Source: Amycolatopsis sp. 2-15 (lineage in GTDB: Bacteria > Actinomycetota > Actinomycetes > Mycobacteriales > Pseudonocardiaceae). From it: a DNA stretch of 64,000 bases. Location of the stretch: the NCBI RefSeq assembly GCF_030285625.1, contig NZ_CP127294.1:816001-880000 (forward strand), read 5' to 3'. The translations under genes and the position numbers were made by a program. Below are positions 1 through 21,047 of this stretch, one piece after another. Each line of letters starts with the position of its first letter. Position 1 is the first letter of the stretch. The notes below the pieces were generated by a model. That model did no database searches, was not told the origin of the DNA, and saw nothing but the letters and a program-made list of their open reading frames with translations.

Positions 1-214
1 GGAGGTCCTGGGCGCGGGTGAGGTAGCGGCCGTGGGTGGCGGCGTCGCGGTGGAGGGACTCGGTGGCGTCGGCCGTGGCCGAGTTGACGTGGCGGTCGCG
101 GAGGGCGCGTTGTTCCTGGTGCTCGCGGGTGGCGGCGTCCTGGGCCGCGCGGGCGGCGGCGAGGCGGTCGGCGGCGGTCAAACTGCGTGCGGCGGGCGGG
201 TCAGCGGCCGTCAA
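1..214 (-). CDS. Partial charged helical protein, third gene of T7SS substrate cassette 2 (runs off left edge)
   Basis: An open minus-strand frame with strongly G/C-biased third codon positions runs off the window edge. The likely start is a TTG at 214 that overlaps the stop of the upstream 448-residue gene by 14 nt; no ATG or GTG was seen and the ribosome binding site is weak, so the start is uncertain. The visible 71 residues are Ala/Arg/Glu-rich and predicted helical (for example RLAAARAAQDAATREHQEQR), like the charged protein encoded at 1959-2417, which holds the same position in the neighbouring cassette. The family is not recognised. It may be a coiled-coil partner or chaperone of the upstream WXG protein; that is inference. 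Confidence 0.5.
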   Translation of the reverse strand, partial: MTAADPPAARSLTAADRLAAARAAQDAATREHQEQRALRDRHVNSATADATESLHRDAATHGRYLTRAQDL

Positions 215-1547
215 CGCCGGGCCCGTCGTCGAGGGAGCCGCTGATGCGGCCGGCCGAGCCGCGGGTGTCGAAGACGTCCGTGCCGAGTCGGGCGGCGGTG
301 CGGGCCTGGTCGCCGGGGGCGGTGCCGAGGCCGCCGAGGCCGGGGAGGGACAGGGCGCCGAAGCCGTCCATGCCGTCGGGGAGGGTTTCGGGGCCTGGGC
401 CGAGGGGGTCGAAGGTGACGTCGCCGCCAGGGGCCGTGCCGAGTTCCGCGGAGGGATGCTGGTCTTGGGGCGGGTCGACGATGTGGGCGCCCAGGTCGGC
501 CAGGGACGCCGAGGCAGTGGTGCTGTCGTCCGGGACGTTCAGGTCGCCCGAGGTCGAGCCTGATGACGGGTCGACGTCGGCCGGAACGACGGGGAGGCCC
601 AGCGCAGGAGTCGGTGAGTCCACGGGCAGGCCAAGGCCGGGACCGGGTGAGTCAGCGGGGACACCGGGAGTCGGCGAGCCGACGGGGACACCCAGCGCGG
701 GAGTCGGCAAGTCCGCAGGCGCGCCGAGAGCAGGACCGGCAGAGTCCACTGTAGACGCTCCCGTCGGAACGGACAGAAACCCCGCCAGGGCACGGAGATG
801 GCCGTCGATGGTGGAGGCGGCCGTGGCGCAGAGGCCCTGGAACGCTGCGTAGCGACTGCTGAACTCGGTCGCGAAAGGACCGTTCAGCCACTGCCGGGCG
901 GCGCGGACCGCGTAGGAGTTGTCGCCGGGTTCGCAGTCGCGTAGGCGGTTGTGGAGGTCGTTGCCGGGGCTGGCGGAGTCGAGCCAGCCGGCGAGGTCGA
1001 GCAGCTCGTCCTTCGAGACGGCGCGACCTTGGGCCACCGCGGCAATCCGTTGCGCCACCGGCAAAGGCGCGCCCGCGATGGAGTCGGTGCGAAGTTTCAG
1101 CGCTTCGTCCACTTTGGTCTTCAAGGTGGTGAAGACGTGGGTCATCGTCTCGGGGATGAGCTGGGCGGCGCCGGCGAGGTGGTCGAGCAAGTCATCCGGG
1201 CGGAGGCGGCGGTACGCACTCTGCGCAGCCGTTGCGGCGGGGCTTTGCCAGTCGCGGAAGAGGGCGGTGGTGGCGGTGGTCGCGTCGGTGTGGGTGGAGT
1301 CGAGGGTGTCGCGCGTGTGGGCCAGCGTGTCGGCGTCGGCGAGGAACTTGTGGAAATCGAGGCCGGCGCTGCCCTGGAACTTCAGCCGGATGTCCTGCTC
1401 GACGTCGATTTTCGTGGCCGCGAAAGTGTTCCAGACCGAGGCCCACTGCGCGAAGAAGTCCAGCGCGGGCGCCGCGAGCGCGAGCACCTCGTCGGACGTC
1501 GCCACCCCGACGCCGCCGGGCCCGGGGCCGCGCAGCGCGTCGGTCAT
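201..1547 (-). CDS. Large WXG-type T7SS substrate with Pro-rich tail (cassette 2)
   Basis: This 448-residue protein begins with an all-helical region of about 260 residues containing a W-Q-S turn (near DWQSPAATAAQSAYRR) in the place where WXG100-type proteins have W-x-G. A Pro/Gly/Ala repeat region with units like PTPALGLPV follows (about residues 270-325), then an acidic disordered region and a C-terminal RISGSLDD tail. It is a paralogue of the 873-residue protein at 2441-5062: both have a D-E-(I/V)-L start, a K-F-(L/M)-x-x-A-D segment before the W turn, and the same tail. Its ATG overlaps the stop of the small EspC-like gene (ATGA), so translation is probably coupled. No toxin or enzyme domain is visible. 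T7SS export is inferred from the architecture. Confidence 0.72.
   Translation of the reverse strand: MTDALRGPGPGGVGVATSDEVLALAAPALDFFAQWASVWNTFAATKIDVEQDIRLKFQGSAGLDFHKFLADADTLAHTRDTLDSTHTDATTATTALFRDWQSPAATAAQSAYRRLRPDDLLDHLAGAAQLIPETMTHVFTTLKTKVDEALKLRTDSIAGAPLPVAQRIAAVAQGRAVSKDELLDLAGWLDSASPGNDLHNRLRDCEPGDNSYAVRAARQWLNGPFATEFSSRYAAFQGLCATAASTIDGHLRALAGFLSVPTGASTVDSAGPALGAPADLPTPALGVPVGSPTPGVPADSPGPGLGLPVDSPTPALGLPVVPADVDPSSGSTSGDLNVPDDSTTASASLADLGAHIVDPPQDQHPSAELGTAPGGDVTFDPLGPGPETLPDGMDGFGALSLPGLGGLGTAPGDQARTAARLGTDVFDTRGSAGRISGSLDDGPGVDGR
585..738 (-). repeat. Degenerate Pro-rich coding repeats
   Basis: Imperfect units of roughly 12-14 residues (PTPALGVPVGS, PGPGLGLPVDS, PTPALGLPV) are encoded back to back inside the 448-residue WXG-type protein. 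They form a flexible linker between the helical head and the conserved C-terminal tail. Confidence 0.55.
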
Positions 1548-1843
1548 CGGTTCGCCGTGTTCCGTGCGGTGTCGACGTGCTCGCCCTCGACGGACGCGTA
1601 CCGCCCAGCCGCCACGTCGAGACTGCTGCCGAACGACGCGAGCTCGCCGGCGTAAGCCTGGACGGCGTCACTCAGCGCGGCGAACCCGTTGCGATACGCG
1701 GCAAACGCCCCGCCATGTCCCCGCCCGAAATCCGCCTCGGCGACTTGCGACGCCACCCCGGACACCCGCCCGGCCGCAGCCTCGAGCACGCCCTTCGCGG
1801 CGCGCATCGCCTCCGCATCCGCCCGGTGGCTGCCCTCCGGCAT
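1544..1843 (-). CDS. EspC-like small T7SS substrate (cassette 2)
   Basis: This 99-residue helical-hairpin protein resembles the EspC family of ESX secretion-associated proteins. The start ATG at 1843 is chosen because a G-rich binding site (GAGGGGG) lies just upstream; an in-frame start 11 codons earlier lacks one. Visible features are ADFGRGHGGAFAAY, giving the FG-x-x-H-G turn typical of this group, and a C-terminal Y-A-S-V-E that fits the general T7SS signal Y-x-x-x-D/E. It is clearly homologous to the protein at 5059-5370. Its stop overlaps the start of the 448-residue WXG-type gene, which suggests a secreted heterodimer in the manner of PE/PPE or EspC/EspA pairs (inference). Confidence 0.75.
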   Translation of the reverse strand: MPEGSHRADAEAMRAAKGVLEAAAGRVSGVASQVAEADFGRGHGGAFAAYRNGFAALSDAVQAYAGELASFGSSLDVAAGRYASVEGEHVDTARNTANR

Positions 1844-1958
1844 GGCCACCCCCTCACTCCGCCGACCCGCACCCACTCCGACGCACGCCGACGGCGCCCG
1901 GTGCCGGTTCCGTGCCCCGGAAATCTAGCGAGTCAGAACGCTTGAGTCGACAAAGAGC

Positions 1959-2417
1959 TCAGTTCGCAAGCCAGTTGGTGTCGGCGAAGTCGGCGTCGTC
2001 GTCGACGGCGTGTGCCGCCCGCCGGTGCCGCCCGGACGGTTCGGCCGGCTGTTCCACGGGCGTTGGAGCGGCGGGCCGCCCGCCGTAGCGGACCTCGGGG
2101 TCGTCGACGGTGCGGAACCCGGCGCGGCGCTCGTTCTCGGCCTCGTCTTCCTCGAACCCGTAGTCGTTGTCTTCGTCGCCCCGGTTCCCGACGGTCTTCT
2201 CCGTCGCCCAGCCGCCGGCCGCCTTCGCGCGACGGTTGCGCTCCTGCAGCCGGACGAACACCTCGCCCTGAATCTTGCCCTGCTTCTCGAGCTTCTCCTT
2301 GCTCTCCGCCACCGCCTCGGCCCGGTTGCGGTCGAGCAAGGCCGACCGGGCGCTGTTCTCGGCCTCCAGCGTCGCGAGCTTGGCGCGCATCGCGGCCAAC
2401 GCGTCCTGCGAACTCAT
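1959..2417 (-). CDS. Charged coiled-coil protein, third gene of T7SS substrate cassette 1
   Basis: This 152-residue protein of unrecognised family has an N-terminal helical, coiled-coil-like part (about residues 1-70: LAAMRAKLATLEAENSAR and following) and an acidic, Pro-containing C-terminal half ending in DDDADFADTNWLAN. There is no signal peptide or membrane segment. It starts 23 nt after the stop of the 873-residue WXG protein and is followed by the second cassette. The heptad-like N-terminus could bind the helical head of the WXG protein, a possible cytosolic partner; this is inferred from position only. Confidence 0.6.
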   Translation of the reverse strand: MSSQDALAAMRAKLATLEAENSARSALLDRNRAEAVAESKEKLEKQGKIQGEVFVRLQERNRRAKAAGGWATEKTVGNRGDEDNDYGFEEDEAENERRAGFRTVDDPEVRYGGRPAAPTPVEQPAEPSGRHRRAAHAVDDDADFADTNWLAN

Positions 2418-2440
2418 CGGACTCCCCTTCCCGATTCCGG

Positions 2441-5062
2441 CTAGCGGCCCATCACCGGGTCATCGTCGAGCGAACCGCTGATGCGGTTGCCCGACTTCGT
2501 CGATTCGAACAGTCCGCGGTCGACGCGGTACCCGCTCGAGGACCGCTCCTGGTCCTGGCCGCCTCCGCCCGCGCCGCCCATCATGCCGCCACCCATCATC
2601 CCCATCGAGGAGGACTGCTGGCCCTGGTGGTCGCCCATCGTCGGCGCGGCGCCGAGCGGAGACGTCGACGGGTCGGTCGCACCACCGCCCAGGGGCGCGC
2701 TCGCGTCCGGGCTCGTCCCGAGCGAGTCGTCCGCGTGCGCCTCGAAACCACTGTGGCTGTCGAGCGGGTTGGTGAGCGACTGGGCGGTGGTCGAGTCGTC
2801 GACTGCCACCGGTCCGTCCTGCCCGACGTGGCTCGCCGCGTCGGCGGAGAAGCCGGCCGGCTGCGGCACGTCCGCGGCGTGCTGGGGACCGGCATCCGCC
2901 GCGTGGAGCGGGACGGATTCCTGCCCGCTCGAATGCGCCGGCAAGTCTTGGCCGCCGGGCCCGCCGCCGGTTCCGGCCGTGTGACCGGGCCCGTCCTGCG
3001 GGCCGCCCGGGTCGCCCGAGTGGGAGGCGCCCGGCACGTCCGGAAGCCCGTGCTGCGCCGTGGTGCCCGTCGGAGCGGTGCCCGTCGGGTCGGTGCCCGT
3101 CGGAGCGGTGCCCGTGAGCGCGTCCGGCTTGTCATCGTCGCCGAGGGTGTACTTGACGGGCTCGCCGCTACCGTCGTCGACGGTCACCACGGTCGGCCCG
3201 TCCGGCCCCGACGGCTGTTCCGCGGTGATCTTGAGGCCGCCGTCCTCGATGTGGATCTTGCCGTCCGGGCCGGGCTCGTAGGTCTTGCCGGACGGATCGG
3301 CGGACTGGGTCCCGTCGTGACCCTGGGGGCCGAAGCCGGGGGTGGTTTGCCCAGGCGGAGTGGGCTGGCCAGGAAGACCCGGCTGCCCGGGCTGTCCTGA
3401 GTGGACAGGCTGACCCGGCTGGCCGGGCTGGCCAAGCTGCCCCGGAACGGCAGCAGCACCGTCCTTCGGATCATCGAAGTCGAGGTTGTACTGCTTGGGG
3501 TGCCCAGTGCCGTCGTCGACGGTGATGCCCATGCGGCCGTCGGAGTCCGGCTCGGTCATCGCGATCTTGTGATCGCCCTGCTCGACGGTCATCGTCTCGG
3601 GCTCGGCGGTCTTGATCGCCTCGCCGGTACGCGGGTCGATCGGATACGGCTTGCCCGTGGCGGGGTCGGTCTCGAGCGGCTGGTGCGTGACCGGGTTGAG
3701 GGTCGGATCGGTCGCGTCCGGGGTCTTCGGCAGGTCGACCTTCGGCATCGCCGGCGTCCCACCGCCGCCACCGGCCGAGGGCAGCCCGCCACCGCCGTTG
3801 CCTCCGCCACCACCGCCGCCACTGCTACTGCTACTGCTGGACGGCTTGGTGGTGCCCGGGTCCGGCGGCGCGGCCTGGTCGACGTTCGAGAACGGGTCCT
3901 GCGGAAGCTGGCCGAAGAAGTCGGTGAGCGCACGCCAGAAGCCGTCGACTACGGTGTGGGTGTTGGTGCACATCGTCTTGAAATCGCGGATGTACCCGTC
4001 GAAGAACTTCCCGAAGTTGTCCTTCAGGTAGATGTTGCACTGGTCGACGATGTGGTTGATCGTGTCGTCGTTGAGGTTGCACGAGTCGTCGTCGATCATC
4101 TGCTGCGATTCCTGGTCCAGGAACTTCGCGCAGTGTTTGAAGTCGTCCTGGCTGGCGTTGCTGCGCAGCTCGGCGATCCGGATGATGCGGTCCAGGTCCG
4201 GGGCGGTCACTTGGCCGAGCGAATCGACCCGGTACTTGATCACCCAGTTCGCCTTGTCCCGGCAGGCCTTGCCGACGGAACCGCACGCGGACTTCATCGC
4301 TGCGGCCGCGTTTGTAGCGGCATCGGACACGACCTTGGCGTCGGCTGTGTAGTTCTTCCGGAAGTTGTTCGCCGAGTCGGCCGCGCTGCCTTGCCAGTCG
4401 GCGAGGTTGGTCGAGAGCTGGCCTTCGACATCGGTCGACGCGTTGACCACGGCCCCGCTCAACGCTGCGAACTCATCGGCGCCCGTCATGAACTTGGTGA
4501 ACGGGATCTTCCGCTGTTCGTCGTAGAGCTTGTAGAGATCGTTCCTGTTGGCGGGTTGATAGGTCCCGACCAAGGCGACGGCGCGGTTGAACAGAGGCAC
4601 CCAGATGTCGAATGTCTTCATCCCCGGCAAGCCCAGGTCGAGGATCTCATCGGACGTGTTCGCCCCGGCGTTCGTCGCCGAGGCTTTGCCTGCCTGCGCG
4701 TCGAGCTTGCCCTTGGCGTCGTCCGCGGCCTTCTTGTCGGCCGCGCGGGCGTCCGCCTGGTTCTTCTGGTGGATGCCGTTCGCCTGCGAATAGGCGTCGT
4801 AGACGTCGTTGTTGTCGTGGTTGTCGTCAGCGTCCTCGGGCGGATCGGCACTGAGCGCCATGTCGTTCTTGACCCGGTCGCGCCACTGCTCGAACTCGTG
4901 CTCGTCCTTGAACCCGTACTTCGTCGGGTCGTTGTCTTCGAGGTACTTGATGTACTTCCACGCCAGGTCGGTCCCCGCCTGGGTCTTACCGAGGCCGTTG
5001 TCGTAGAGGATCTCCTCGACTTCTTGGCGGGACGGGACGTCGTCCCCCTCGCCGGCGCTCAC
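2441..5062 (-). CDS. Giant WXG-type T7SS substrate with low-complexity tail (cassette 1)
   Basis: This 873-residue protein has four parts: an N-terminal charged region (about 1-130); a helical WXG-type domain with ADWQGSAADSANNFRKNY (W-Q-G at about residue 223); a helical extension to about 400 with several Cys; then a long Ser/Gly/Pro/Gln-rich tail with poly-Ser, poly-Gly, G-Q-P repeats and T-G-T-(A/D)-P repeats. Two blocks in the tail repeat each other (E-P-D-S-D-G-R-M-G-I-T-V-D-D-G-T-G and the P-D-G-P-T-V-V-T-V-D-D-G-S-G segment). It ends in NRISGSLDDDPVMGR, shared with the 448-residue paralogue. The start is a GTG overlapping the preceding stop (GTGA). Secretion by the nearby ESX-4-like machine is likely but unproven. 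Confidence 0.72.
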   Translation of the reverse strand: MSAGEGDDVPSRQEVEEILYDNGLGKTQAGTDLAWKYIKYLEDNDPTKYGFKDEHEFEQWRDRVKNDMALSADPPEDADDNHDNNDVYDAYSQANGIHQKNQADARAADKKAADDAKGKLDAQAGKASATNAGANTSDEILDLGLPGMKTFDIWVPLFNRAVALVGTYQPANRNDLYKLYDEQRKIPFTKFMTGADEFAALSGAVVNASTDVEGQLSTNLADWQGSAADSANNFRKNYTADAKVVSDAATNAAAAMKSACGSVGKACRDKANWVIKYRVDSLGQVTAPDLDRIIRIAELRSNASQDDFKHCAKFLDQESQQMIDDDSCNLNDDTINHIVDQCNIYLKDNFGKFFDGYIRDFKTMCTNTHTVVDGFWRALTDFFGQLPQDPFSNVDQAAPPDPGTTKPSSSSSSSGGGGGGGNGGGGLPSAGGGGGTPAMPKVDLPKTPDATDPTLNPVTHQPLETDPATGKPYPIDPRTGEAIKTAEPETMTVEQGDHKIAMTEPDSDGRMGITVDDGTGHPKQYNLDFDDPKDGAAAVPGQLGQPGQPGQPVHSGQPGQPGLPGQPTPPGQTTPGFGPQGHDGTQSADPSGKTYEPGPDGKIHIEDGGLKITAEQPSGPDGPTVVTVDDGSGEPVKYTLGDDDKPDALTGTAPTGTDPTGTAPTGTTAQHGLPDVPGASHSGDPGGPQDGPGHTAGTGGGPGGQDLPAHSSGQESVPLHAADAGPQHAADVPQPAGFSADAASHVGQDGPVAVDDSTTAQSLTNPLDSHSGFEAHADDSLGTSPDASAPLGGGATDPSTSPLGAAPTMGDHQGQQSSSMGMMGGGMMGGAGGGGQDQERSSSGYRVDRGLFESTKSGNRISGSLDDDPVMGR
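3062..3115 (-). repeat. Tandem 15-nt coding repeat
   Basis: Three full copies and one partial copy of a 15-nt unit (plus-strand form GGTGCCCGTCGGAGC, with small changes) encode T-G-T-A-P, T-G-T-D-P and T-G-T-A-P in the tail of the 873-residue protein. Near-identity of the copies suggests recent slippage expansion. Confidence 0.75.
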
Positions 5063-5370
5063 TTGCCCGCCGCCTTCACCGCGGAGCCGGAAGCGTCTTC
5101 GTTCGCCTGGTAGTGACCCCCTGCGGAGTTGAGCTTTTGCGCGAAGGCGTCGGAGGCCTTCAGGTACGCATCGGCCATTCCAGCCAGACGGAGGACACCC
5201 GAGTGGTACGGGTCGAAGTTCATGCCGTGCGCTTCGCCGAAGTCGGCGGCCACGATCTGCACGTCTTTGACCGCCGCGAGGGGTTGCTGCAGCGTGTTCC
5301 GCGGCATTTCGCTCACGGCTTTCGCGGCCCTCGTCAGCGCCTCAGTATCGACCTTGTGGCCGCCCGCCAT
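5059..5370 (-). CDS. EspC-like small T7SS substrate (cassette 1)
   Basis: This 103-residue protein is homologous to the product of 1544-1843. It contains ADFGEAHGMNFDPYHSG (an FG-x-x-H-G turn) between two helical segments and a C-terminal Y-Q-A-N-E that fits Y-x-x-x-D/E. The ATG at 5370 has a GGGAGGG site six bases upstream; the GTG one codon earlier is too close to it. The stop overlaps the GTG start of the 873-residue partner. A putative promoter with an inverted repeat lies directly upstream, so this gene probably heads the transcript of both cassettes. Confidence 0.75.
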   Translation of the reverse strand: MAGGHKVDTEALTRAAKAVSEMPRNTLQQPLAAVKDVQIVAADFGEAHGMNFDPYHSGVLRLAGMADAYLKASDAFAQKLNSAGGHYQANEDASGSAVKAAGK

Positions 5371-5381
5371 CACTCGCCCTC

Positions 5382-5504: not shown

Positions 5505-6842
5505 TCAGGAGACCGCGGACACCACACCGGCCAGTCGGTCCGCCGCCGCTTGGGCCGTGGAGTGGGCCGGGGCCTCGACCATGACGCGGACGAGCTGTTC
5601 GGTACCCGAGGGGCGCAGGAGGACGCGGCCCTCTTCGCCGAGTTCGGCTTCGACCTCGCCGACGGCGTCGCGGACTTCGGAGGAGCCCGCGACGGCCGCT
5701 TTGTCCGCGACGGGGACGTTGACGAGGACCTGGGGCAGGCGGTTCATCACGGACGCCAGCTCGGCGAGCTTCTTGCCGGTGGCGGTCATGCGGGACATGA
5801 GGCGCAGGGCGGTCAGCAGGCCGTCGCCGGTGGTGGCGTGGGCGGGGAGGACCACGTGGCCCGACTGTTCGCCGCCGAGGGCGAGGCCGGAGGCGCGCAG
5901 CTCTTCGAGCACGTAGCGGTCGCCGACGGACGTGGTGACGACCGTGATGCCGTGGGCCTTCATCGCGAGGTGCAGGCCCAGGTTGCTCATCACGGTCGCG
6001 ACGAGCGTGTCCTTCACCAGCTCGCCGTCCTCGGCCAGCGCGAGGGCCAGCACGGCCATGATCTGGTCGCCGTCCACGAGCTCGCCGGACGCGTCCACGG
6101 CGACGCAGCGGTCGGCGTCGCCGTCGTGGGCGATGCCCAGGTCGGCGCCGTGTTCGACGACGGCGGCGCGGAGCAGGTCGGGGTGGTTCGAACCGCAGTG
6201 CTCGTTGATGTTGATGCCGTCGGGCTCCGCGTGGAGGGCGACGACCTCGGCGCCGGCGCGGCGGTAGGCCTCGGGAGCGGCGACGGCGGACGCGCCGTTG
6301 GCGCAGTCCACCACGACCTTCAGGCCGTCGAGGCGGTGCGGCGTGGCCGAGAGCAGGTGGGCGATGTAAAGGTCGAGCGCGTCGGAAACGTCGGACACCC
6401 GGCCGACGCCCGAGCCCGTCGGGCGGACGACGTCGGCGCCGCCCAGGCCGGCTTCGATCTCGTCCTCGATGCTGTCGGGGAGCTTGTGCCCGCCCGCGGC
6501 GAAGAGCTTGATGCCGTTGTCCGGCATGGGGTTGTGCGAGGCCGAGATCATCACGCCCAGATCGGCCTCCAGCGCACCCACGAGGTACGCGACGGCGGGC
6601 GTCGGCAGCACGCCCAGGCGCAGCACGTCGGCGCCGGCGGACGCGAGGCCCGCCACCACGGCGGCCTCCAGCATCTCGCCGCTGGCGCGCGGGTCGCGGC
6701 CGACCACGGCCACCGGGCGGTGCGAACGGTCGTGCGCGGCGAGCACACGCGCGGCGCTGGCCGCGAGCGAAAGCGCCAGCTCGGGGGTCAGCTCGGCGTT
6801 GGCCAGCCCTCGTACCCCGTCGGTGCCGAACAGTCGGGCCAT
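5505..6842 (-). CDS. glmM: Phosphoglucosamine mutase
   Basis: This 445-residue enzyme interconverts glucosamine-6-phosphate and glucosamine-1-phosphate, on the way to UDP-GlcNAc and peptidoglycan. It has the N-terminal [10 protein letters not shown] motif, the catalytic serine in [12 protein letters not shown] (Ser102), the metal-binding D-G-D-A-D-R near residue 240 and the phosphate-binding R-P-S-G-T-E loop near the C-terminus. The ATG at 6842 is preferred because AGGAGG (6851-6856) lies 8 nt upstream; a GTG two codons earlier would be only 2 nt from it. The gene follows rpsI on the same strand, the order also found next to ESX-4 loci in mycobacteria. The intervening 259 nt contains a terminator. 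Confidence 0.97.
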
Positions 6843-7020
6843 CTCCACGACCTCCTAGGTCCAAATCGACCACGACAACCTAGCGGCGGCTGCGACCCGG
6901 CCGGGCCCCTGCCCCCACCCCAGGAATGTCGCGGACCGCGCGCGAAATGCATCACTGTGGGGCAGATGGGACACATGAGGTCCCAGAGAACACGTTCAGT
7001 ACAGCACTCGGAAAACACGA

Positions 7021-10212: not shown

Positions 10213-10497
10213 TCAGAAGAGGTTCTCGACGTCCTTGTCGGTCTTGGTGTAACCGTCGGCGATCTCCGGCAGCGCGATGGCGATCTGCGCCAGCAGCTGG
10301 GTGAGGTCGTTGAAGCTGTTGTCCCAGTCGGCCTGGGCCTTCAGGTAGTTGTCCTTGGCCGCACCGGTCCAGGTGTTCGTGAGCTTGCTCAGGTCTTCCT
10401 TGAGCCGGTCGAACGAGGACTTCAGGTCCTTGGTGGTCGCGTTGCAGTCGTCAGCCGCCCGGTGAATCGTGGCCGGGTCAACGAGGATGCGTGCCAT
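10213..10497 (-). CDS. WXG100 protein, EsxA-type partner
   Basis: This 94-residue helix-turn-helix protein has the central W-T-G (LTNTWTGAAKDNY, about residues 39-52), the hallmark of ESAT-6-like T7SS substrates. Its C-terminus GYTKTDKDVENLF contains Y-T-K-T-D, fitting the Y-x-x-x-D/E export signal. It lies 58 nt after the second WXG100 gene, and the pair would form the secreted heterodimer of the ESX-4-like system. In mycobacterial ESX-4 loci, esxT/esxU hold this place next to rplM. Confidence 0.88.
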   Translation of the reverse strand: MARILVDPATIHRAADDCNATTKDLKSSFDRLKEDLSKLTNTWTGAAKDNYLKAQADWDNSFNDLTQLLAQIAIALPEIADGYTKTDKDVENLF

Positions 10498-10555: not shown

Positions 10556-10879
10556 TCAGCCGAGGACGCCGAAGCCCTTGTTGAAGCTGCTCACGATTTC
10601 GTTCTGCTCGGCTTCAGTGCGCTGGTACTTGGAGCCAGCTTCCTGCAGCAGGTCCGCAATGCGCTGGAGCGACTGGTTCAGCTTCTTGCCCGACTCGTCG
10701 AAGCGCTGCATGACGTTGTTGAACGCCTGAGCCGCCTCGCCGTCCCAGCCCGCGCGGGTGGCTTCGATCTCGCCCTGCAGCGTGGAGAGCCGCTGGTCCA
10801 TCGCGACGCGAACGTCGGTGACCTGGTTCTCAGCGTTGGTGAACTCTTCCGGAGTTCCTTCAAAGCCGCCAGCCGCCAT
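10556..10879 (-). CDS. WXG100 protein, EsxB/CFP-10-type partner
   Basis: This 107-residue WXG100 protein has W-D-G in TRAGWDGEAAQAFNNVMQRF and a C-terminal Y-Q-R-T-E signal (GSKYQRTEAEQNEIV), as in CFP-10. The ATG at 10879 is supported by a GAAGGGGG site seven bases upstream; two earlier in-frame starts have no site. It precedes the EsxA-type gene, the usual B-then-A order. The 244-nt upstream gap probably holds the promoter, but no convincing hexamers were found. Confidence 0.88.
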   Translation of the reverse strand: MAAGGFEGTPEEFTNAENQVTDVRVAMDQRLSTLQGEIEATRAGWDGEAAQAFNNVMQRFDESGKKLNQSLQRIADLLQEAGSKYQRTEAEQNEIVSSFNKGFGVLG

Positions 10880-11123
10880 GGGAACTACCCCCTTCATCTC
10901 ATTGGTCGTGCGTACCGGCGTCCTGTTTCCGCCGTACACCCCTACGACGAAGACAGTGCCAGGTTCGGTTCACCCTTGGTGCGAGATTTCCCAAGTAGTT
11001 GCTTGCGTGAACGCCGCCCGAGGGAACCGACGCCGCCGAACCGAGCGTGACGCCGGCGGGAAAAGTCGCAAAACCCTTGGCCTACTGGGCAATTAGCACA
11101 CGCACAGCCGGAATGAACGAGAT

Positions 11124-13621: not shown

Positions 13622-16600
13622 TCAGTCGGGCTGGATCCACGACACCTGCACGAGCTGCCTGCCGTTCTTGCGGCTGAGCATCACACCCCGGCCCGGCGGC
13701 ATCGCGGCGGGCCGGATGTTGCCGATCAGCACGCCCTCGTCCTTCGAGCCGTTCATGACCATGCCCGGCGCCGCGATCTCCTTGAGCTTGCCGATGACCG
13801 GGTCGTACGAGGCCCTCGACGCACCACCGGTGCGGCGCACGATGATCAGGTGCAGGCCGACGTCCTTCGCCTGGGCGAGGAAGTCCGCCAACGGCTTGAG
13901 CGGGTTGGACGTCTGCGTGGCCACCAGGTCGTAGTCGTCGACCAGAATGAACAGCTCCGGCCCGGTCCACCACGACCGGTTCCTCAGCTGGTCCTGCGTG
14001 ACGTCCGGGCCCGGCAGGCGCCGGGTCATCGACCCGTGCACGTCCTTGACCATGCTGTCCAGCTGGTTCGACGACACGGCGTACCCGAGCAGCGAGTCGC
14101 CCTCGAGGAAGCCGAGCATCGTGCGCCGGTAGTCGACCAGGAGGATCACGCCCTCCTGCGGCGAATACCGCTCGGCGATCCCCCGGCCGATCTGGCGCAG
14201 CAGGTTCGTCTTGCCCGACTCGCCGTCGGCGAACGCGAAGAAGTGCGGCTCGGCGTCGAAGTCGAGGTAGACCGGCGAAAGGTCGTCCTCGTTAACGCCG
14301 AAGGGCACCAGCTTCGTGTTGCGCTTGGAGTCGATCTTGAGGACTTCGTCGTAGGTGATCATCTCCGGCAGCAGGCGGACCTGCGGCGCGGAACGGCCAC
14401 GCCAGGCGCCGCGGATCTTCGCGACGGCGTCGGCCACACCCGCGGCCAGCGACTCGGCGTCGCTGGAGCCGTCGATGCGCGGCAGGCCCGTGAGCATGTG
14501 CAGCTTGTCGCGGGTCAGACCACGGCCGGGGCGCCCGGCCGGGATGTTGACCGCGATGCGGCGGTCGATGTCCGACTCGGTCGGGTCACCGAGGCGCAGC
14601 TCGAACCGGGTGCCCAGCATGTCCTTGATCGCCGGGCGCAGGTCGGCCCACCGGTTGGCGGAGATGACCACGTGGATGCCGTACGACAGACCCTGCGTGG
14701 CCAGCCGCGTGATCGACGCCTCGAGCTCGTCGAAGTCGTCGCGGATGGCGCGCCAGTTGTCCACGATCAGGAACGCGTCGCCGAACGGGTCCTGCTCGGC
14801 GGGGATCTCGCCGCGGCGCTTGCGGTTGCGGAACTCGGTCATCGAGTCGATGCCCAGCGCCCCGAACCGGCCTTCGCGCTCGGTCATGAGCGTGGTCAGC
14901 TCGGCCACGATCCGGCGGGCCTTGTCGGGCTCGCGCCGGGCCACGGCCACACCACCGACGTGCGGCAGGTCGGCGAGGCCCGCGAGCGTGCCACCACCGA
15001 GGTCGAGGGCGTAGAACTGCACTTCCTCGGGCGTGTGCGTGAGCGCCATCGACATGATCAGCGTGCGGAGCATGGTCGACTTGCCGGCCTGCGGGCCACC
15101 GGCGATCACCGCGTGGCCGGCGGCGCCGGAGAAGTCGGCCCACAGCAGGTCGCGCCGCTGCTCGAACGGCCGGTCGACGATGCCCAGCGGCACCTGCAGC
15201 CGGCCGTTGCCGAAGAACCCGACCGGGGACAGGCCGCGGTCGTCGGTGGGGTTGAGGTTCGGCAGCATCGTGTCGAGCGAGTTGGACTCGTCCAACGGCG
15301 GCAGCCACACCTCGTGCGCGGGCGGGCCCTGGCCGATGAACCGGTCGACCATCACCTCGAGCTCGCTCGGTTCGGTGGTCTCCTCCGGCTCCTTCGGCTT
15401 CGCCACCTCTTCGACCGGCTCGAACTGCGGCTCCGGCTCGGGCGGCAGCTCGACGAAGTCGGGCACGAACAGCTGCGGGCGCTTGTCCGCGCGCACGACC
15501 GTGGCCACCGGCCCGGCCGCCTTGATGCCGGCGGGGCGGTACGGGCCCGAGACGTACGACGCCTTGAACCGCACCATCGTGGAGGTGTCGTACTTGAGGT
15601 AGCCCGAACCCGGGATCGACGGCAGCTCGAACGCGTCCGGCACGCCGATCGCGGCGCGCGACTCCGCGGCCGAGAAGGTCTTCAGGCCGATCCGGTAGGA
15701 CAGGTACGTGTCCAGACCACGCAGCTTGCCCTCCTCCAGCCGCTGCGACGCGAGCAGCATGTGCATCTGCAGCGACCGGCCGACGCGGCCGATCTGGAGG
15801 AAGATGTCGATGAAGTCCGGCTTCGCCGTCAGCATCTCGGAGAACTCGTCGATGCAGATGAACAGCGCGGGCAGCGGGTCGAGGTCGGCGCCGTTCTCGC
15901 GCGCCTTCTCGTAGTCCCACACGTTCTTGTAGTTGCCCTTCGCCAGCACTTCCTGGCGCCGGGACACCTCGCCCGCGATGGCGTCCTTCATGCGGTCGAC
16001 CAGCGTGAGGTCGCCCGCGAGGTTGGTGATCGTGGCGGCGACGTGCGGGGCCTTGTCCAGGCCGAGGAACGTCGCACCACCCTTGAAGTCGACGAGGATC
16101 ATGTTGAGCGACGTGCTCGAGTGCGTGGCGAGCAGGCCCAGCACCAGCGTGCGGAGGAACTCCGACTTACCGGAACCGGTCGCCCCGATGCACAGGCCGT
16201 GGGGGCCCATGCCCTCCATCGCCGCTTCCTTGATGTCCAGCTCGACGGCCTGGCCGTATTCGCCGACACCGAACGGCACGCGGTAGCGGTCGCGCACCGG
16301 CCGCGGGCGCCAGGCGCCCTGCACGTCGAACGTCATCGGGTCGCCCGGGATGCCGAGCAGCTCCAGCAGCGTGGGGTTGGAGAGCAACGGCTCGTCGTCC
16401 GACGCCTCCGTGCCGCCACCGCCTCCGACGCGGTACGGCGCGATCAGGCGGGCGAGCGCCTCGGCCTCGACCACCGACAGGGTGTCCGGCCGGCCGAACC
16501 ACTCGACGCCGCCGGCGCTGCGCGCGCCGAGGCGGTCGGGCTCGGCCACGAGCCGCAGGCCGCGGCGCGCCGAGAGGTTCCCGAGGGTGTCGGACAGGTC

Positions 16601-17632
16601 GACCAGCGTGACGCCGACCAGGCCCTCCTCGAGGATGATCTGCTCTTCGCGCGTGACCTCGGCGTCGTCGATGATGATCACGACGTGCGGCTGGTCAGGC
16701 GCCGGCGTGGCGTTGCGTGAGAACCGCTGCCGGTCGCGCAGTTCCTCGTCGAGCCACTGCTCGATCTGGGCCAGCGAGCCGGCCATCATGCGGAGCTGGC
16801 CGATGCCGTCGGACATCGTGGGGTGCTGGACGTGCGGGAGCCACTTCGCCCACTCCCACTCCTCCTTCGCCCGGCCCGCGGTGGCGATCGCGATCATCAC
16901 GTCGTCGGGGCTGTGGAAGGCGACCAGCTGCGCGAGCATCGCGCGGGTGAGGCCACGCGTGAGCGAGCGCTCGCCCTGCATGCTCACGGCGGCGAACCCG
17001 CGCAGGGTGATCTGCGTGGGCAGGTCGGGCACGATCGAGTGCGCGCGCACGAACCGGCGCAGCGCGAGGGTGGCGATCGGCTCCAGCTCGTCGACCGGGC
17101 CGGTCTGCGGCGGCACGAGCCGCGTGGCGAGGCGGTGGGAGCTGCGGCCGACGCGCAGGTGCAGGAAGTCCTGGTCGTTCTGCCGGCGTTCCCACATGCG
17201 GCGGCTGGCGGCGAGCGACCACAGCGACTGCGGGTCGGGGTGCACCCACTCGAGCGCGGCGCGCTGGTCGACCATCGCCTCGCGGGCACGGTCGCGCATC
17301 TGGCCCAGGTACCGCAGGTAGTCCTTGCGGTCCTCGTCCATTTCGGCCTTCTTCTGGCCACCGCCCCGGCCGCCACCGCCGGCGAGCATGCCGACGGTGC
17401 CCATCAGCATCATGCCGCTCATCATGATCGTGGTCGGGTTCTTCCCACCCGCCGTGAACATGAAGACCATCATCCCGAGCGACGCGAAGATCATGACGCC
17501 CGGAATCGCCTTCGCGACGATGTTGCCCGGGATCGTGCGGGGTACTTCGGGTGGGGGCTCGAGATGCACCTCGCCGCCCGGCGGGCGCGGCGCCGCCAGC
17601 CGCGGCGACTTCTTGAACTGAAGCGTGCTCAT
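13622..17632 (-). CDS. eccC: EccC, FtsK/SpoIIIE-type secretion ATPase
   Basis: This 1336-residue motor is the single-chain form of EccCa plus EccCb. It has two N-terminal membrane segments (about 38-90, Met/Gly-rich), then three P-loop ATPase domains. Walker A lysines are visible at Lys489 (GATGSGKSEF), Lys851 (GGPQAGKSTM) and Lys1141 (DGESGKTNLL). Domain 1 has the Walker B ILVDFKGG and the FICIDEFSEM segment; domain 2 has FLIVDNW. EccC binds the C-terminal signal of Esx proteins and drives export through the membrane complex. The ATG has GAGGGG seven bases upstream. The gene is divergent from eccD across 374 nt and is followed by the Hsp70-like gene after 58 nt. Confidence 0.96.
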   Translation of the reverse strand: MSTLQFKKSPRLAAPRPPGGEVHLEPPPEVPRTIPGNIVAKAIPGVMIFASLGMMVFMFTAGGKNPTTIMMSGMMLMGTVGMLAGGGGRGGGQKKAEMDEDRKDYLRYLGQMRDRAREAMVDQRAALEWVHPDPQSLWSLAASRRMWERRQNDQDFLHLRVGRSSHRLATRLVPPQTGPVDELEPIATLALRRFVRAHSIVPDLPTQITLRGFAAVSMQGERSLTRGLTRAMLAQLVAFHSPDDVMIAIATAGRAKEEWEWAKWLPHVQHPTMSDGIGQLRMMAGSLAQIEQWLDEELRDRQRFSRNATPAPDQPHVVIIIDDAEVTREEQIILEEGLVGVTLVDLSDTLGNLSARRGLRLVAEPDRLGARSAGGVEWFGRPDTLSVVEAEALARLIAPYRVGGGGGTEASDDEPLLSNPTLLELLGIPGDPMTFDVQGAWRPRPVRDRYRVPFGVGEYGQAVELDIKEAAMEGMGPHGLCIGATGSGKSEFLRTLVLGLLATHSSTSLNMILVDFKGGATFLGLDKAPHVAATITNLAGDLTLVDRMKDAIAGEVSRRQEVLAKGNYKNVWDYEKARENGADLDPLPALFICIDEFSEMLTAKPDFIDIFLQIGRVGRSLQMHMLLASQRLEEGKLRGLDTYLSYRIGLKTFSAAESRAAIGVPDAFELPSIPGSGYLKYDTSTMVRFKASYVSGPYRPAGIKAAGPVATVVRADKRPQLFVPDFVELPPEPEPQFEPVEEVAKPKEPEETTEPSELEVMVDRFIGQGPPAHEVWLPPLDESNSLDTMLPNLNPTDDRGLSPVGFFGNGRLQVPLGIVDRPFEQRRDLLWADFSGAAGHAVIAGGPQAGKSTMLRTLIMSMALTHTPEEVQFYALDLGGGTLAGLADLPHVGGVAVARREPDKARRIVAELTTLMTEREGRFGALGIDSMTEFRNRKRRGEIPAEQDPFGDAFLIVDNWRAIRDDFDELEASITRLATQGLSYGIHVVISANRWADLRPAIKDMLGTRFELRLGDPTESDIDRRIAVNIPAGRPGRGLTRDKLHMLTGLPRIDGSSDAESLAAGVADAVAKIRGAWRGRSAPQVRLLPEMITYDEVLKIDSKRNTKLVPFGVNEDDLSPVYLDFDAEPHFFAFADGESGKTNLLRQIGRGIAERYSPQEGVILLVDYRRTMLGFLEGDSLLGYAVSSNQLDSMVKDVHGSMTRRLPGPDVTQDQLRNRSWWTGPELFILVDDYDLVATQTSNPLKPLADFLAQAKDVGLHLIIVRRTGGASRASYDPVIGKLKEIAAPGMVMNGSKDEGVLIGNIRPAAMPPGRGVMLSRKNGRQLVQVSWIQPD

Positions 17633-18006: not shown

Positions 18007-19404
18007 GTGGCAACGGGCACGACGGTATTCAGCAGGGTGACGGTGGTCGCACCGAACACCCGGATCGACGTCGCGCTTCCGGCCGACGTCGCGGTGGCCG
18101 ACCTGCTGCCGATGCTGCTGGAGATGGCCAAGGAGACCTCGCCCGACGGCGGCGCGCGCCACGGCGGCTGGGCACTGGCCAAACTTGGCGACGCCCCGCT
18201 CGACCCGAGCCGCACGCTGGCCTCGCTCGGCGTCGTGGACGGCGAGCTGCTGCAGCTGCGCAAGCGCAACGAGAACCCGCCGCCGCCGCTGTACGACGAC
18301 GTCGTCGACGCCATCGCCGAGTCGACGCCCGACAGCTTCCGCCCGTGGACCAAGGAGACGGCGCGCCGCTTCGGCCACGTCGCCGGCGGCCTCGCACTCT
18401 TCATCTCCGCGCTGGCGCTGTTCATGAGCGGCTCGCTCTACGGTGGCAGCGCGCTCGGCGCGGCCATCGCCGGCGGCCTCGGCGCGATCGCCTGTGTGGC
18501 GGTCGGCGCGACGCTCGCGAAGGGCTACCAGGCCGAAGCTACGGGCGTGCTGATCGCGGCCGCGGGCGGTCTGCCGCTGGCGTTCGTGAGCGGCTTCTAC
18601 ATCGTGCCCGGCCTTTCGGTGCGCGCGAACCTGCTGCTGGGCGCGGTGCTCGTGCTGATCGTCTCGGCGGTCTGCATCCTCATCATCGGCGCCGGCATCC
18701 GCGTCTTCATCGCCGCGGCCACGGCCGGCGCGTTCGGCGCGATCGCGTTCCTCGTCGCCACGCTCGTGCCCAGCGCCACCACGGCCGGGGTGGGCGCCGG
18801 CGCGGTCGCCGTGGCGCTCGCCTGCATCTCGATCCTGCCGCGCGCCACGATCTGGCTCGCCAAGCTCCCGCTGCCGCACGTGCCCAGCACCGCGGAGGAG
18901 CTGAAGGAAGACTCCGGTTTCCCGGACTACCAGGCCATCGAGCAGCGCACCGCGATCGCCCACGACTACATGACCGGCCTGATGATCGGCTGTGGCGCCA
19001 CCACGGCTGTCTCCGCCGTGCTCGCCGCGACCGCGCCGGGCTACTTCGGGGTCATCCTCGGTGTGATCGCCACGCTCGTGCTGCTGCTGCGCGCCCGCGC
19101 GTACGCCAACGGCGCGCAGGCCATCGCGCTGCTCACCACCGGCATGGTGTCCGCGGCCGGCATCCTCGTCGGCTGGCTCTTCGCCACCACGGCGGAGTTC
19201 CGCCTGCTGTACGTGTTCGGCGCCCTGATCGTGGTCGCCGCGGGCTCGCTCGTGGTCGGCGTGATCTTCCCGAACCAGCGCTTCTCGCCGCCGCTGCGGC
19301 GCACCGTGGAGATCCTCGAGGCGATCTGCATCGCGGTCGTGCTGCCGCTGGCGCTCGGCGTGATGGACCTCTACACGACGCTGCGCCACCTGAACCTCAA
19401 GTGA
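18007..19404 (+). CDS. eccD: EccD, T7SS membrane channel component
   Basis: This 465-residue protein has an N-terminal ubiquitin-like (YukD) domain (about 6-80: FSRVTVVAPNTRIDVALP to GVVDGELLQLRKR), a cytosolic linker with Pro-rich NENPPPPLYDD, and about eleven membrane helices from residue 125 onward. In mycobacterial ESX complexes EccD dimers line the central cavity of the membrane complex. The GTG start at 18007 follows AGCGGGGG. The gene is followed 8 nt later by mycP, the usual eccD-mycP pair of ESX-4. Confidence 0.94.
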   Translation: MATGTTVFSRVTVVAPNTRIDVALPADVAVADLLPMLLEMAKETSPDGGARHGGWALAKLGDAPLDPSRTLASLGVVDGELLQLRKRNENPPPPLYDDVVDAIAESTPDSFRPWTKETARRFGHVAGGLALFISALALFMSGSLYGGSALGAAIAGGLGAIACVAVGATLAKGYQAEATGVLIAAAGGLPLAFVSGFYIVPGLSVRANLLLGAVLVLIVSAVCILIIGAGIRVFIAAATAGAFGAIAFLVATLVPSATTAGVGAGAVAVALACISILPRATIWLAKLPLPHVPSTAEELKEDSGFPDYQAIEQRTAIAHDYMTGLMIGCGATTAVSAVLAATAPGYFGVILGVIATLVLLLRARAYANGAQAIALLTTGMVSAAGILVGWLFATTAEFRLLYVFGALIVVAAGSLVVGVIFPNQRFSPPLRRTVEILEAICIAVVLPLALGVMDLYTTLRHLNLK

Positions 19405-19412
19405 GGCAGCAG

Positions 19413-21047
19413 ATGCGCGCACGACGTCCGTTCGTCCGGCGGCTCGGGATCGGTGGCCGCACGGGCGTGGTCCTGCTCGCGGCCGGGCTCGGGGTGCTGT
19501 CACCGTTCGCGCTCGTCTCGCCGGCGTCGGCCCAGCAGGGCTCCGACGTCGCGGGCACGTGGGCGACGCCGCCGCAGGTGGACGACACCGTGTTGCCTCC
19601 GGACGAGCGCAAACCGGACAAGAACTACCAGAAGAAGACCGAGTGCGTGCAGCGCAGCCTCGGACAGAACGTCGAGATCAAAACGATCCCGTGGGGCCAG
19701 AGCTACCTGCAGCTGGACAAAGCGCAGCAGATCGTGCGCTCCGCCAAGCGCACGGTCGGCGGGGGCATCACCGTCGCAGTGGTCGACACCGGCGTCACCC
19801 CACACCCGTGGTTCCAGGGCCGCGTCGAAAGCGGCGGTGACTACGTCGCCAAGCCGGACAACGGCCAGCCGGACGGCCTGCAGGACTGCGACGGCCACGG
19901 CACCGAGGTCGCCGGCATCATCGCGGGCAATCCGCAGGACCCGAAGGTCGGTTTCATCGGCGTCGCGCCCGACGCGACGATCCGTTCCTACCGGCAGCTG
20001 AGCTCCAACTACGCCGAGGACCAGAACAGCACCGGCGACACCGGCGGCAACACCAGCAGCCCGCCCGGGAGCAACACCGGCACACCGCCCAGCGGCCAGA
20101 ACGGCAGCCAGCTCCCAGGCAACGGCGGTGGCGAGGTCGGCGGCGGTACCGCTCCTCAGCAGGACGACAAGGGCGACACCCGGCAGCTGCAGAAGGAAGG
20201 CACCGCCGGCACGCTGCACACGCTGGCCGAGATCATCCACGGCATCGCGGAACGCCAGGAAGCCAGCGTCATCAACATGTCCGTGGACCACTGCCGCGCG
20301 GCCGACGGCACCGGCAGCATCCAGGAGGGCGAGCAGGAAGTGCAGGCCGCGGTGAAGTTCGCGGCCGATCAGAACGTGGTGGTCGTCGCCGCCGCGGGCA
20401 ACGTCTCCGACGACTGCCCGCAGAACGACCAGGCCGACCCGAACAAACCGCGCTCGATCGTCACGCCGCCGTGGTTCGCCGACGACGTGCTGTCGGTCGG
20501 CGCGATCGACGAAACCGGCGGCGTCGCTTCGTTCAGCGTGCACGGGCCGTGGGTCGGCGTCGCCGCGCCGGGCACCGACATCGTGTCGCTCGACCCGGCC
20601 CAGGGCTCCACGGGCCTGGCGAACCTCACGATCGACGGCACCCAGCAGTCGGCGATCCAGGGCACGAGCTTCGCCTCGCCGTACGTGGCCGGCGTGGCCG
20701 CGCTCGTGCGCCAGATGTACCCGCAGCTCAGCGCGCGCCAGGTGATCCAGCGCATCGAGGCCACCGCGCAGCACCCGGCCGCACCGGGCGGGCGCGACGA
20801 CTTCGTGGGCTACGGCGTGATCGACCCCGTGGCCGCGCTCACCGCGAACCTGCCGAACGACGTCGGCGAGCTCGCGAAGCCGAAACCCGTGGTGCAGACG
20901 GCGGTGCTGCCGCCCGCCGACTCCACGAGCTCGACGCCGATGATCGTCGCGCTCGCCGGCACCGGCGGTGGCGTCGTGGCGCTGCTGATCACGCTCTTCG
21001 TGATGCACACGATCCGGCGCAACCGTCCGACCGGACCGCCGAGCTGA
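19413..21047 (+). CDS. mycP: Mycosin, membrane-anchored subtilisin-like protease of T7SS
   Basis: This 544-residue protease has a signal peptide ending near SPASAQQ, an S8 domain with the catalytic triad Asp125 (VAVVDTGVTPHP), His162 (DCDGHGTEVAGI) and Ser419 (GTSFASPYVAGVAAL), and a C-terminal membrane helix (about 510-533) with a short basic tail. A Gly/Ser/Asn/Pro-rich insert of about 60 residues after the His motif corresponds to the mycosin-specific loop. Mycosins stabilise the ESX membrane complex and process substrates. The ATG at 19413 (GAGG nine bases upstream) gives a proper signal peptide; a longer open frame extending into eccD is not used. Confidence 0.94.
   Translation: MRARRPFVRRLGIGGRTGVVLLAAGLGVLSPFALVSPASAQQGSDVAGTWATPPQVDDTVLPPDERKPDKNYQKKTECVQRSLGQNVEIKTIPWGQSYLQLDKAQQIVRSAKRTVGGGITVAVVDTGVTPHPWFQGRVESGGDYVAKPDNGQPDGLQDCDGHGTEVAGIIAGNPQDPKVGFIGVAPDATIRSYRQLSSNYAEDQNSTGDTGGNTSSPPGSNTGTPPSGQNGSQLPGNGGGEVGGGTAPQQDDKGDTRQLQKEGTAGTLHTLAEIIHGIAERQEASVINMSVDHCRAADGTGSIQEGEQEVQAAVKFAADQNVVVVAAAGNVSDDCPQNDQADPNKPRSIVTPPWFADDVLSVGAIDETGGVASFSVHGPWVGVAAPGTDIVSLDPAQGSTGLANLTIDGTQQSAIQGTSFASPYVAGVAALVRQMYPQLSARQVIQRIEATAQHPAAPGGRDDFVGYGVIDPVAALTANLPNDVGELAKPKPVVQTAVLPPADSTSSTPMIVALAGTGGGVVALLITLFVMHTIRRNRPTGPPS

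What the first reader, a model, noticed from the sequence alone, without database searches (positions are those of the whole stretch)
201..5370. Tandem three-gene T7SS-substrate cassette with a shared C-terminal tail
Seen in sequence: two copies of the order EspC-like small gene, large WXG-type gene, charged helical gene lie head to tail on the minus strand. Small and large genes overlap by 4 nt in both copies (GTGA and ATGA). The small proteins are clear paralogues, and so are the WXG heads. Both large proteins, otherwise very different in length (873 and 448) and tail, end in RISGSLDD followed by a short G-R end. A tail this conserved behind unconserved low-complexity sequence suggests a functional signal, for example for recognition, processing or surface anchoring.
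Basis: partly seen in the sequence, partly recalled or inferred. Interest (0 to 1): 0.7.

Follow-up and report, generated by a model that had tools for sequence, protein, structure and literature searches.

The report
Secretion cassette with portable tail peptide
Next to a protein-export machine in a soil bacterium lie two copies of a three-gene set, probably an exported protein pair plus a helper, whose large protein ends in a short conserved tag also found on a second, otherwise different, export protein; this points to an unrecognised address label and to candidate cargo for a poorly understood export system.

Summary
In an Amycolatopsis genome, two small-large-third cassettes lie head to tail between glmM and glmS, beside an ESX locus (EccB/C/D/E, mycosin, WXG100 pair). 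The small proteins carry the T7SS export motif YxxxD/E. The large protein is modelled as a helical head with a WxG turn, two beta units, disordered linkers and a disordered tail. RISGSLDD is the core of a longer tail: of 61 homologues found by words from the first 500 residues, 49 have it exactly, 11 as variants, and one record is partial. In the samples searched it was confirmed only in Pseudonocardiaceae. The same nonapeptide ends a second T7SS substrate in Amycolatopsis whose relatives elsewhere lack it, so the tail looks portable. The third protein has an acidic-aromatic tail shared with YbaB-type proteins of other T7SS cassettes, although the bodies are unrelated. Mycobacteria have a two-gene version at the same place with a different conserved tail and no third gene seen. 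I read the cassette as an EspC-EspA-EspD-like substrate pair with a dedicated chaperone, and RISGSLDD as a docking motif for a shared partner. No partner or secretion was shown. New variant of a known kind.

The parts
5059..5373 (-). small gene A (104 aa), EspC/WXG100-like; overlaps large A by 4 nt
   Evidence: Pfam EspC 12.9 bits, below its 23.5-bit cut-off
5098..5112 (-). YQANE, T7SS export motif YxxxD/E of small A
   Evidence: Y88 invariant and YxxxD/E in 18 of 18 aligned small proteins
2441..5062 (-). large gene A (873 aa)
3863..5047 (-). helical head of large A (residues 6-400)
   Evidence: AlphaFold2 pLDDT mostly 83-97 per 10-residue block; weak profile match to EsxB/EsxA-type PDB chains at profile positions 184-262
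4388..4396 (-). W223-x-G225 turn between helices 188-219 and 226-276
3473..3610 (-). beta unit 1 of large A (about residues 485-530)
3137..3271 (-). beta unit 2 of large A (about residues 598-642)
2489..2557 (-). tail block 1 of large A (QDQERSSSGYRVDRGLFESTKSG)
2462..2485 (-). tail block 2 RISGSLDD of large A; predicted disordered
1959..2417 (-). third gene A (152 aa), charged; no Pfam or NCBIfam match
1962..2003 (-). acidic-aromatic tail of third A (DDDADFADTNWLAN)
1544..1876 (-). small gene B (110 aa)
1586..1600 (-). YASVE, YxxxD/E motif of small B
201..1547 (-). large gene B (448 aa), lacking the beta units
225..248 (-). RISGSLDD of large B
1..214 (-). start of third gene B; runs out of the window to L003:11810 (134 aa, ends FDDHDFSNNTWMVD)
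5505..6848 (-). glmM, synteny anchor
13622..17632 (-). eccC of the adjacent ESX locus; EccD 18007-19404, mycosin within 18345-21047, EccB 22622-24265, EccE 24422-26038, WXG100 pair 10213-10497 and 10556-10939

Best explanation
The cassette encodes a type VII secretion substrate pair with its own cytosolic helper. The small EspC-like protein and the helical WxG head of the large protein form a folded heterodimer, which the neighbouring machine (in the ESX-4 position) exports through the YxxxD/E motif of the small protein. The third protein works like the EspD/EspH chaperones and docks through its acidic-aromatic tail, a motif it shares with YbaB-type proteins of other T7SS cassettes. RISGSLDD and the block before it form a short linear motif on a flexible arm. 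It docks to a partner shared by several substrates, most likely a component of the secretion machine or envelope. Shown: gene order, motifs, conservation, predicted disorder, recurrence of both tails on bodies without detectable homology beyond a weak WxG stretch, and position beside the ESX locus. Inferred: heterodimer formation, secretion, chaperone role, docking, and the identity of the partner.
For: ESX genes next door. YxxxD/E in 18 of 18 aligned small proteins; in an automatic pick 43 of 55 distinct small C-termini had it, against 16% of shuffles, the misses including wrongly picked ORFs. Head matches EsxB/EsxA-type chains weakly and is modelled as helices around a WxG turn. Tail predicted disordered. 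R[IV]SG.[LI] kept in 60 of 61 homologues, the 61st being a partial record. Class-2 large shares only RISGSLDDD (9 of 9) and a weak WxG stretch with large A; the tail marks one clade, support 97/99, among 59 homologues. An HMM of 23 class-1 third-gene tails, searched against the last 40 residues of 614 ORFs from loci chosen by other criteria, hits 12 of 34 YbaB proteins (some near-copies of each other) and 6 of 580 others at E<=0.1; those 6 are 5 held-out third genes and 1 class-1 large. Third and YbaB bodies unrelated: hhalign probability 0.2%. In ESX-1, YbaB-like EspH binds EspE and EspD stabilises EspA/EspC (PMC6107294, PMC6319747; passages read).
Against: No secretion, binding or expression data. 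Window small proteins score below the Pfam EspC cut-off, and the larges have no EspA or PPE match. The third is not YbaB-like by profile. The head's PDB matches include unrelated helical and linker-rich chains at similar E-values. The mycobacterial pair has a conserved tail but no third gene was seen, so tail and third gene are separable. In class-2-like loci of other genera the YbaB tails stay while the RISG tail is absent, which argues against the third reading RISGSLDD. Of 40 EspC-centred regions the automatic rule found a RISG-type neighbour in 1 (L222); a second (L220, class 2) is known from the same place. So the tail is not general. A few small proteins lack YxxxD/E (L049, L069, L070, L114, L117). 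The genome has two further EccC loci, so the machine used is not proven.
Confidence: 0.5

Rival explanations
1. The tail acts after export: a surface-retention, assembly or mycosin-processing element at the end of a flexible Gly/Met-rich arm, and not a cytosolic address.
For: It sits after long disordered linkers, far from the folded head. EspB of ESX-1 has a processed C-terminal region (recalled). In some genomes a protein in another T7SS-like cassette, starting like a lipoprotein by eye (L166, L186), carries a similar acidic-aromatic tail, which would lie outside the cell.
Against: No LPXTG-like, transmembrane or lipid signal is evident by eye in the tail (no tool was run for this). No conserved cleavage site between families was noticed.
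Confidence: 0.25
2. RISGSLDD is read by the third protein itself (chaperone-substrate tag).
For: Of 52 class-1 larges with the tail, the automatic rule found a downstream gene with the acidic-aromatic tail in 38; 4 more show a recognisable variant, and 10 were not resolved by the ORF picking. Degenerate forms of both tails also go together in other genera. Both recur in the class-2 locus.
Against: Third bodies of class 1 and YbaB proteins are unrelated, yet the octapeptide is identical. Class-2-like loci in other genera keep YbaB tails without the RISG tail. Mycobacteria have a tail but no third gene was seen.
Confidence: 0.15
3. The tail is an inherited leftover or composition effect without its own function, held by common descent.
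For: All confirmed carriers are in one family.
Against: Conservation well above the flanking linkers, survival in copy B after absence of the beta units, presence on the class-2 protein, and much synonymous variation: 27 distinct 24-base words encoding RISGSLDD (words chosen from the pattern hits because they encode it).
Confidence: 0.07

Closest known systems
EspC-EspA-EspD and EspF-EspE-EspH of mycobacterial ESX-1
   Same: Small EspC-type protein, large WxG/EspA-type partner and a dedicated third protein; YxxxD/E on the small partner (PMC6107294 and PMC6319747, passages read)
   Different: Class-1 large and third proteins match neither EspA/EspE nor YbaB models; different ESX locus; the C-terminal tails are not described in the passages read
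Mycobacterial glmM-downstream pair (annotated 'alanine and proline rich protein'; Rv3440c-Rv3439c by recall)
   Same: Same place after glmM, EspC-family small (PF10824, 35 bits), large with a WDG motif and Pro-rich linker, 4-nt overlap, conserved C-terminal peptide
   Different: Tail is TPCEIAADELPQVG-like (PC[EQ]IA near the end in 113 of 120 listed homologues), RISG-type in 0 of 120; no third gene seen in 6 of 6 genus-g53 regions
YbaB/EbfC-type T7SS proteins of Amycolatopsis EspC cassettes
   Same: Acidic-aromatic C-terminal tail; gene next to an EspC-like small gene
   Different: Third proteins have no YbaB domain
ESX-4 substrates EsxU/EsxT (WXG100 pair)
   Same: A WXG100 pair lies in the window's ESX locus on the far side of glmM; correspondence to EsxU/EsxT is by position and recall
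   Different: Shorter, without linker or tail; a separate pair from this cassette

Membership tests
EspACD-type ESX-1 substrate-chaperone set | Small partner of the EspC family (PF10824) | tested here: inconclusive
   Window small B 14.8 and small A 12.9 bits, cut-off 23.5; class-2 small 38.9 and mycobacterial small 35 bits pass
EspACD-type ESX-1 substrate-chaperone set | Large partner of the EspA/EspE family (PF18879) | tested here: not met
   No match for window larges at E<=1
EspACD-type ESX-1 substrate-chaperone set | YbaB-like third protein | tested here: not met
   No Pfam match; hhalign probability 0.2% to the YbaB alignment
T7SS-exported heterodimer | YxxxD/E after the second helix of one partner | tested here: met
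   18 of 18 in alignment A8; the helix position was not modelled for the small protein
T7SS-exported heterodimer | WxG turn in the other partner | tested here: met
   Copy A W223-x-G225 in a helix-turn-helix; copy B has WQS
T7SS-exported heterodimer | Export dependent on EccC | not testable with these tools
   needs secretion assays
PPE family (PF00823) | Pfam match of the large protein | tested here: not met
   Class 1 none; class 2 yes, 30.3 bits
WXG100 family (PF06013/TIGR03930) | Score above curated cut-off | tested here: not met
   Small B 19.9 (cut-off 27.3) and 20.4 (44.85) bits; large B 13.7 bits
ESX-4 locus gene | Position with rplM-rpsI-glmM beside ecc genes | tested here: met
   glmM, rpsI and ecc genes by NCBIfam; rplM read by eye; the mycobacterial ESX-4 map used for comparison is recalled
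YbaB/EbfC (PF02575) | Domain match of the third protein | tested here: not met

The most novel reading that the evidence does not exclude
T7SS substrates of Mycobacteriales carry interchangeable C-terminal address peptides on disordered arms, read by the export machine and distinct from YxxxD/E: RISGSLDD in Pseudonocardiaceae pairs beside the ESX locus, CEIAADELPQVG in mycobacteria, LAEAGPL in two other genera (one genome each), and PPVIGD/E on other PPE/WXG-type larges. A parallel acidic-aromatic tail addresses the chaperones. The glmM-side pair would then be an overlooked core ESX-4 substrate of the order.
Probability: 0.3. Interest if true: 0.85.

Novelty: new variant of a known kind. Interest (0 to 1): 0.6.

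Why it matters
ESX-4 is commonly regarded as the ancestral mycobacterial T7SS (recalled), and a recent M. [quoted passage not shown] A substrate pair kept beside this locus from Amycolatopsis to Mycobacterium, but separated from it by glmM and two ribosomal genes, is a concrete candidate. If the tail docks to the machine, it would show how large disordered T7SS substrates are sorted beyond YxxxD/E, and it is short enough to test by truncation in a harmless soil actinomycete.

Tried and rejected
Considered and dropped: (1) tail as the general T7SS export signal: rejected, because YxxxD/E is on the small partner and class-2 relatives outside one clade lack the tail. (2) Tail strictly tied to the third gene: rejected by the mycobacterial pair and by class-2-like loci in other genera. 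(3) Third gene as a YbaB homologue: rejected at profile level. (4) Tail on all EspC partners: rejected; in 40 EspC-centred regions (of 54 hits) the automatic rule found only L222, L220 being known besides. (5) A strict DNA pattern for the third-gene tail gave 6 matches against 8 for its reversed control and is uninformative. (6) Tail profile in 148 genomes of the class: own plus 9 genomes with weak matches at E 0.003-0.08, not inspected and possibly chance. (7) The DNA pattern also hits unrelated proteins: of 31 short loci, 28 are T7SS larges and 3 (L004-L006) are not. (8) The third-tail profile also gives hits that look like chance at E 7e-4 to 0.5, in other families as well. (9) Literature: 6 papers hold Rv3439c or Rv3440c, one occurrence each, not opened (listing); no held paper contains RISGSLDD or ISGSLDD; no paper held four of the five ESX-4/alanine-proline terms. 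My ORF caller is a simple GC3 heuristic and misses genes, so 'not seen' in loci is weak.
Full report
WHAT IS THERE. The window lies in a 10.05 Mb genome of Amycolatopsis, family Pseudonocardiaceae (genus from the names of close homologues; lineage). On the minus strand, downstream of glmM, are two copies of a small-large-third gene set, and glmS follows beyond the window edge. On the other side of glmM lie rpsI, rplM (the latter read by eye), a WXG100 pair, EccC, EccD, mycosin, EccB and EccE. Both small-large overlaps in the window are 4 nt. In the 64 cassettes where the script picked a small gene, the commonest junctions are overlaps of 1 nt (22) and 4 nt (16), several of the rest being wrongly picked ORFs. 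The small proteins are paralogues (E 4e-11), as are the heads of the large ones (E 2e-18) and their last 38 residues (E 4e-4). The third gene of copy B is almost wholly outside the window.

IS THE TAIL REAL. The degenerate DNA pattern (MGNATHWSNGGNWSNYTNGAYGAY, roughly [RS]-I-[ST]-G-[ST]-[LF]-D-D) occurs only at these two places in the genome. It is in 26 of 26 genomes of the window's genus group and 27 of 271 other genomes of the family; the reversed pattern occurs in none of 297. That second figure includes chance hits: of 31 short loci with the pattern, 28 are C-terminal tails of T7SS large proteins and 3 are unrelated proteins. Some genomes of another genus group of the tool also bear the name Amycolatopsis (compare). 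Loci picked by the tail are biased, so I used two searches that do not choose candidates by it. First, 61 homologues whose search words come from the first 500 residues: 49 have the exact motif, 11 are variants (RISGSIDDD, RISGSLLDDED, RISGSL[AS]EEDE, RVSGVLGE), and 1 is a partial record. Second, the neighbours of glmM: 5 of 5 family members chosen because they had no exact pattern still have small-large-third. Their large tails match the class-1 tail HMM at E 5e-8 to 0.002 in four genomes and only 0.11 in the fifth (L113). In the 49-row alignment, mean majority identity is 0.87 for the tail core, 0.65 for the block before it, 0.66 for the Gly/Met-rich stretch before that, 0.43 for the long linker and 0.49 for the head; the second beta repeat reaches 0.77. 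As a profile the tail is found in 21 of 219 genomes of the order, all in this family. In a scan of the species-genome collection the pattern RI[ST]GSLDD[DE] matched 73 stretches; 51 encode relatives of the large protein (46 loci, named Amycolatopsis, Qaidamihabitans, Actinophytocola or Thermocrispum, all Pseudonocardiaceae), and the other 22 were not inspected.

SHAPE. AlphaFold2 with 49 sequences gives a helical head (blocks of pLDDT mostly 83-97) with helices 188-219 and 226-276 meeting at W223-x-G225, two small four-stranded beta units (490-528 and 602-640), and pLDDT under 50 in the linkers and the whole tail (mean pLDDT 67). By sequence the head region matches ESAT-6-type chains (4lws E 5e-5, EsxB 0.0027), among unrelated helical or linker-rich chains at similar E-values. 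The small proteins have an invariant Tyr with Asp or Glu four residues on, in 18 of 18 aligned; a few outside that alignment lack it (L049, L069, L070, L114, L117). So the ordinary T7SS export motif is on the small partner.

THE THIRD GENE HAS A TAIL TOO. Third proteins end in acidic residues, an aromatic, and usually W with L or M: DDDADFADTNWLAN and FDDHDFSNNTWMVD here, DDDDFSNNSWMK and the like elsewhere. Among 52 class-1 larges with the tail, the automatic rule found such a gene downstream in 38; 4 more show a variant, and 10 were not resolved. Searching the third tail in 24 genomes, 15 of them Amycolatopsis, turned up YbaB-domain proteins beside EspC-like genes, for example GEDFSDQSFLRRD and DDDYFSGNDFL, and also some hits that look like chance. 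As a stricter test I built an HMM from 23 class-1 third tails only and searched the last 40 residues of 614 distinct complete ORFs from loci chosen by EspC, glmM or class-2 large. At E<=0.1 it hit 12 of 34 YbaB proteins and 6 of 580 others; those 6 are five held-out third genes and one class-1 large. Several of the 12 are near-copies from related genomes. Many of the remaining 22 YbaB tails look similar by eye (DDDDFGGSILS, DDDDFGNNTLMR), while others end in NNPW or NSPW. The bodies are unrelated (hhalign probability 0.2%).

THE LARGE TAIL IS PORTABLE. In several Amycolatopsis a different cassette, near genes that look by eye like the dcw cluster (EspG and YbaB by Pfam, EspC-family small, PPE-type large of 343-379 aa), ends in SGRISGSLDD; its YbaB ends DDGEDFQHVDWTGRS. 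Its large protein shares with large A only RISGSLDDD and a weak WxG stretch. Of 61 homologues of it, 26 have the tail (22 RISG, 4 TISGSLDD) and 35 do not; relatives named Actinokineospora and Kibdelosporangium end differently, and so does one distant homologue named Amycolatopsis taiwanensis. On a tree of 59 of them (2 short ones dropped, last 35 residues removed) the tail marks one clade with support 97/99 and one change; the tree is unrooted, so a gain is the simplest reading and not proven, and some outer branches are long. A third cassette type, distantly related to the second (E 2e-5), ends SGRISGRIDD or SGRIHGRID, with a third protein without Pfam match ending DDDDYFG.S.L. Several larges of about 1320-1490 aa in other EspC cassettes do not carry the tail. 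So the tail is neither universal nor needed for a YbaB partner.

MYCOBACTERIA. Downstream of glmM in Mycobacterium crocinum (L129; name) lie an EspC-family small gene (35 bits) and a 443-aa Pro-rich large gene with a WDG motif, overlapping by 4 nt, with no third gene seen. None of its 120 listed homologues (of 816) has a RISG-type tail; 113 of 120 have PC[EQ]IA in the last 40 residues, as in TPCEIAADELPQVGQ. Six of six genus-g53 regions look the same. One region of genus g65 (L325) has three genes, with the large ending LAEAGPL and the third ending DDEAEYYRRKSWLV. One of genus g80 (L323) has a large ending LAEAGPL, and no third gene was seen. In three other regions of that family and 14 regions of other families I saw no cassette, with a weak gene caller; in all I read 30 of the 101 glmM genomes this way. 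The layout (WxG head, flexible linker, conserved terminal peptide) is thus shared while the peptide changes between lineages.

HOW IT MOST LIKELY WORKS. Published work gives the model: EspH binds EspE, and EspD stabilises EspA/EspC; these are proposed as YbaB-like chaperones for paired ESX-1 substrates (PMC6107294 and PMC6319747, passages read). By analogy, small and large proteins pair, the third keeps them competent and docks through its tail, and export uses YxxxD/E. RISGSLDD, identical on otherwise different substrates, is best read as a docking motif for one shared partner. In 58 cases it is followed by 2 to 13 residues, so a fixed distance to the C-terminus is not required. Whether it acts before or after export is open, and I give post-export anchoring or processing a quarter of the probability.

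WHAT IS NEW. The gene set is of a known kind. The portable tail, the shared chaperone tail and the conserved glmM-side pair did not turn up in my searches of the held literature (listings, with passages of three papers read). Most subscription papers are not held.

Noticed in passing
window 21115-22242 (-) and L208, L209, L211-L213, L216, L236, L237, L192:2306-3646: Other PPE/WXG-type large proteins end in a different shared motif, (P)PPVIG[DE] or PDVIGD (8 cases found, besides the window pair and L192 seen), some next to genes that look EspG-like by eye.
   Followed up: partly
L129, L319-L321, L326, L327 downstream of glmM: Mycobacterial pair with its own conserved terminal peptide TPCEIAADELPQVG.
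   Followed up: partly
L323 and L325 downstream of glmM: Two other genera of the same family have larges ending LAEAGPL; L325 also has a third gene with an acidic-aromatic tail.
   Followed up: partly
L035:7914-10871, L082:8102-11063: In other Amycolatopsis an AMP-binding enzyme, a carrier-protein gene and a gene on the opposite strand (310 aa, no Pfam match) sit between the two cassettes; they are absent in the window.
   Followed up: no
window large A residues about 453-645: Two conserved four-strand beta units (NPVTG..., TVEQGD..., PGPDGKIHI...) with no Pfam match, absent from copy B.
   Followed up: no
L166, L185, L186, L189, L190, L197, L201: A gene following a small/large pair ends VDDEDF..T.WTDGGT or similar (in L189 seen only as the profile hit); in L166/L186 it begins like a lipoprotein by eye, so an acidic-aromatic tail may lie outside the cell.
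   Followed up: no
G000:C1:9284478-9288376: A further EccC-like match in the window's genome is split over two frames in the six-frame search.
   Followed up: no
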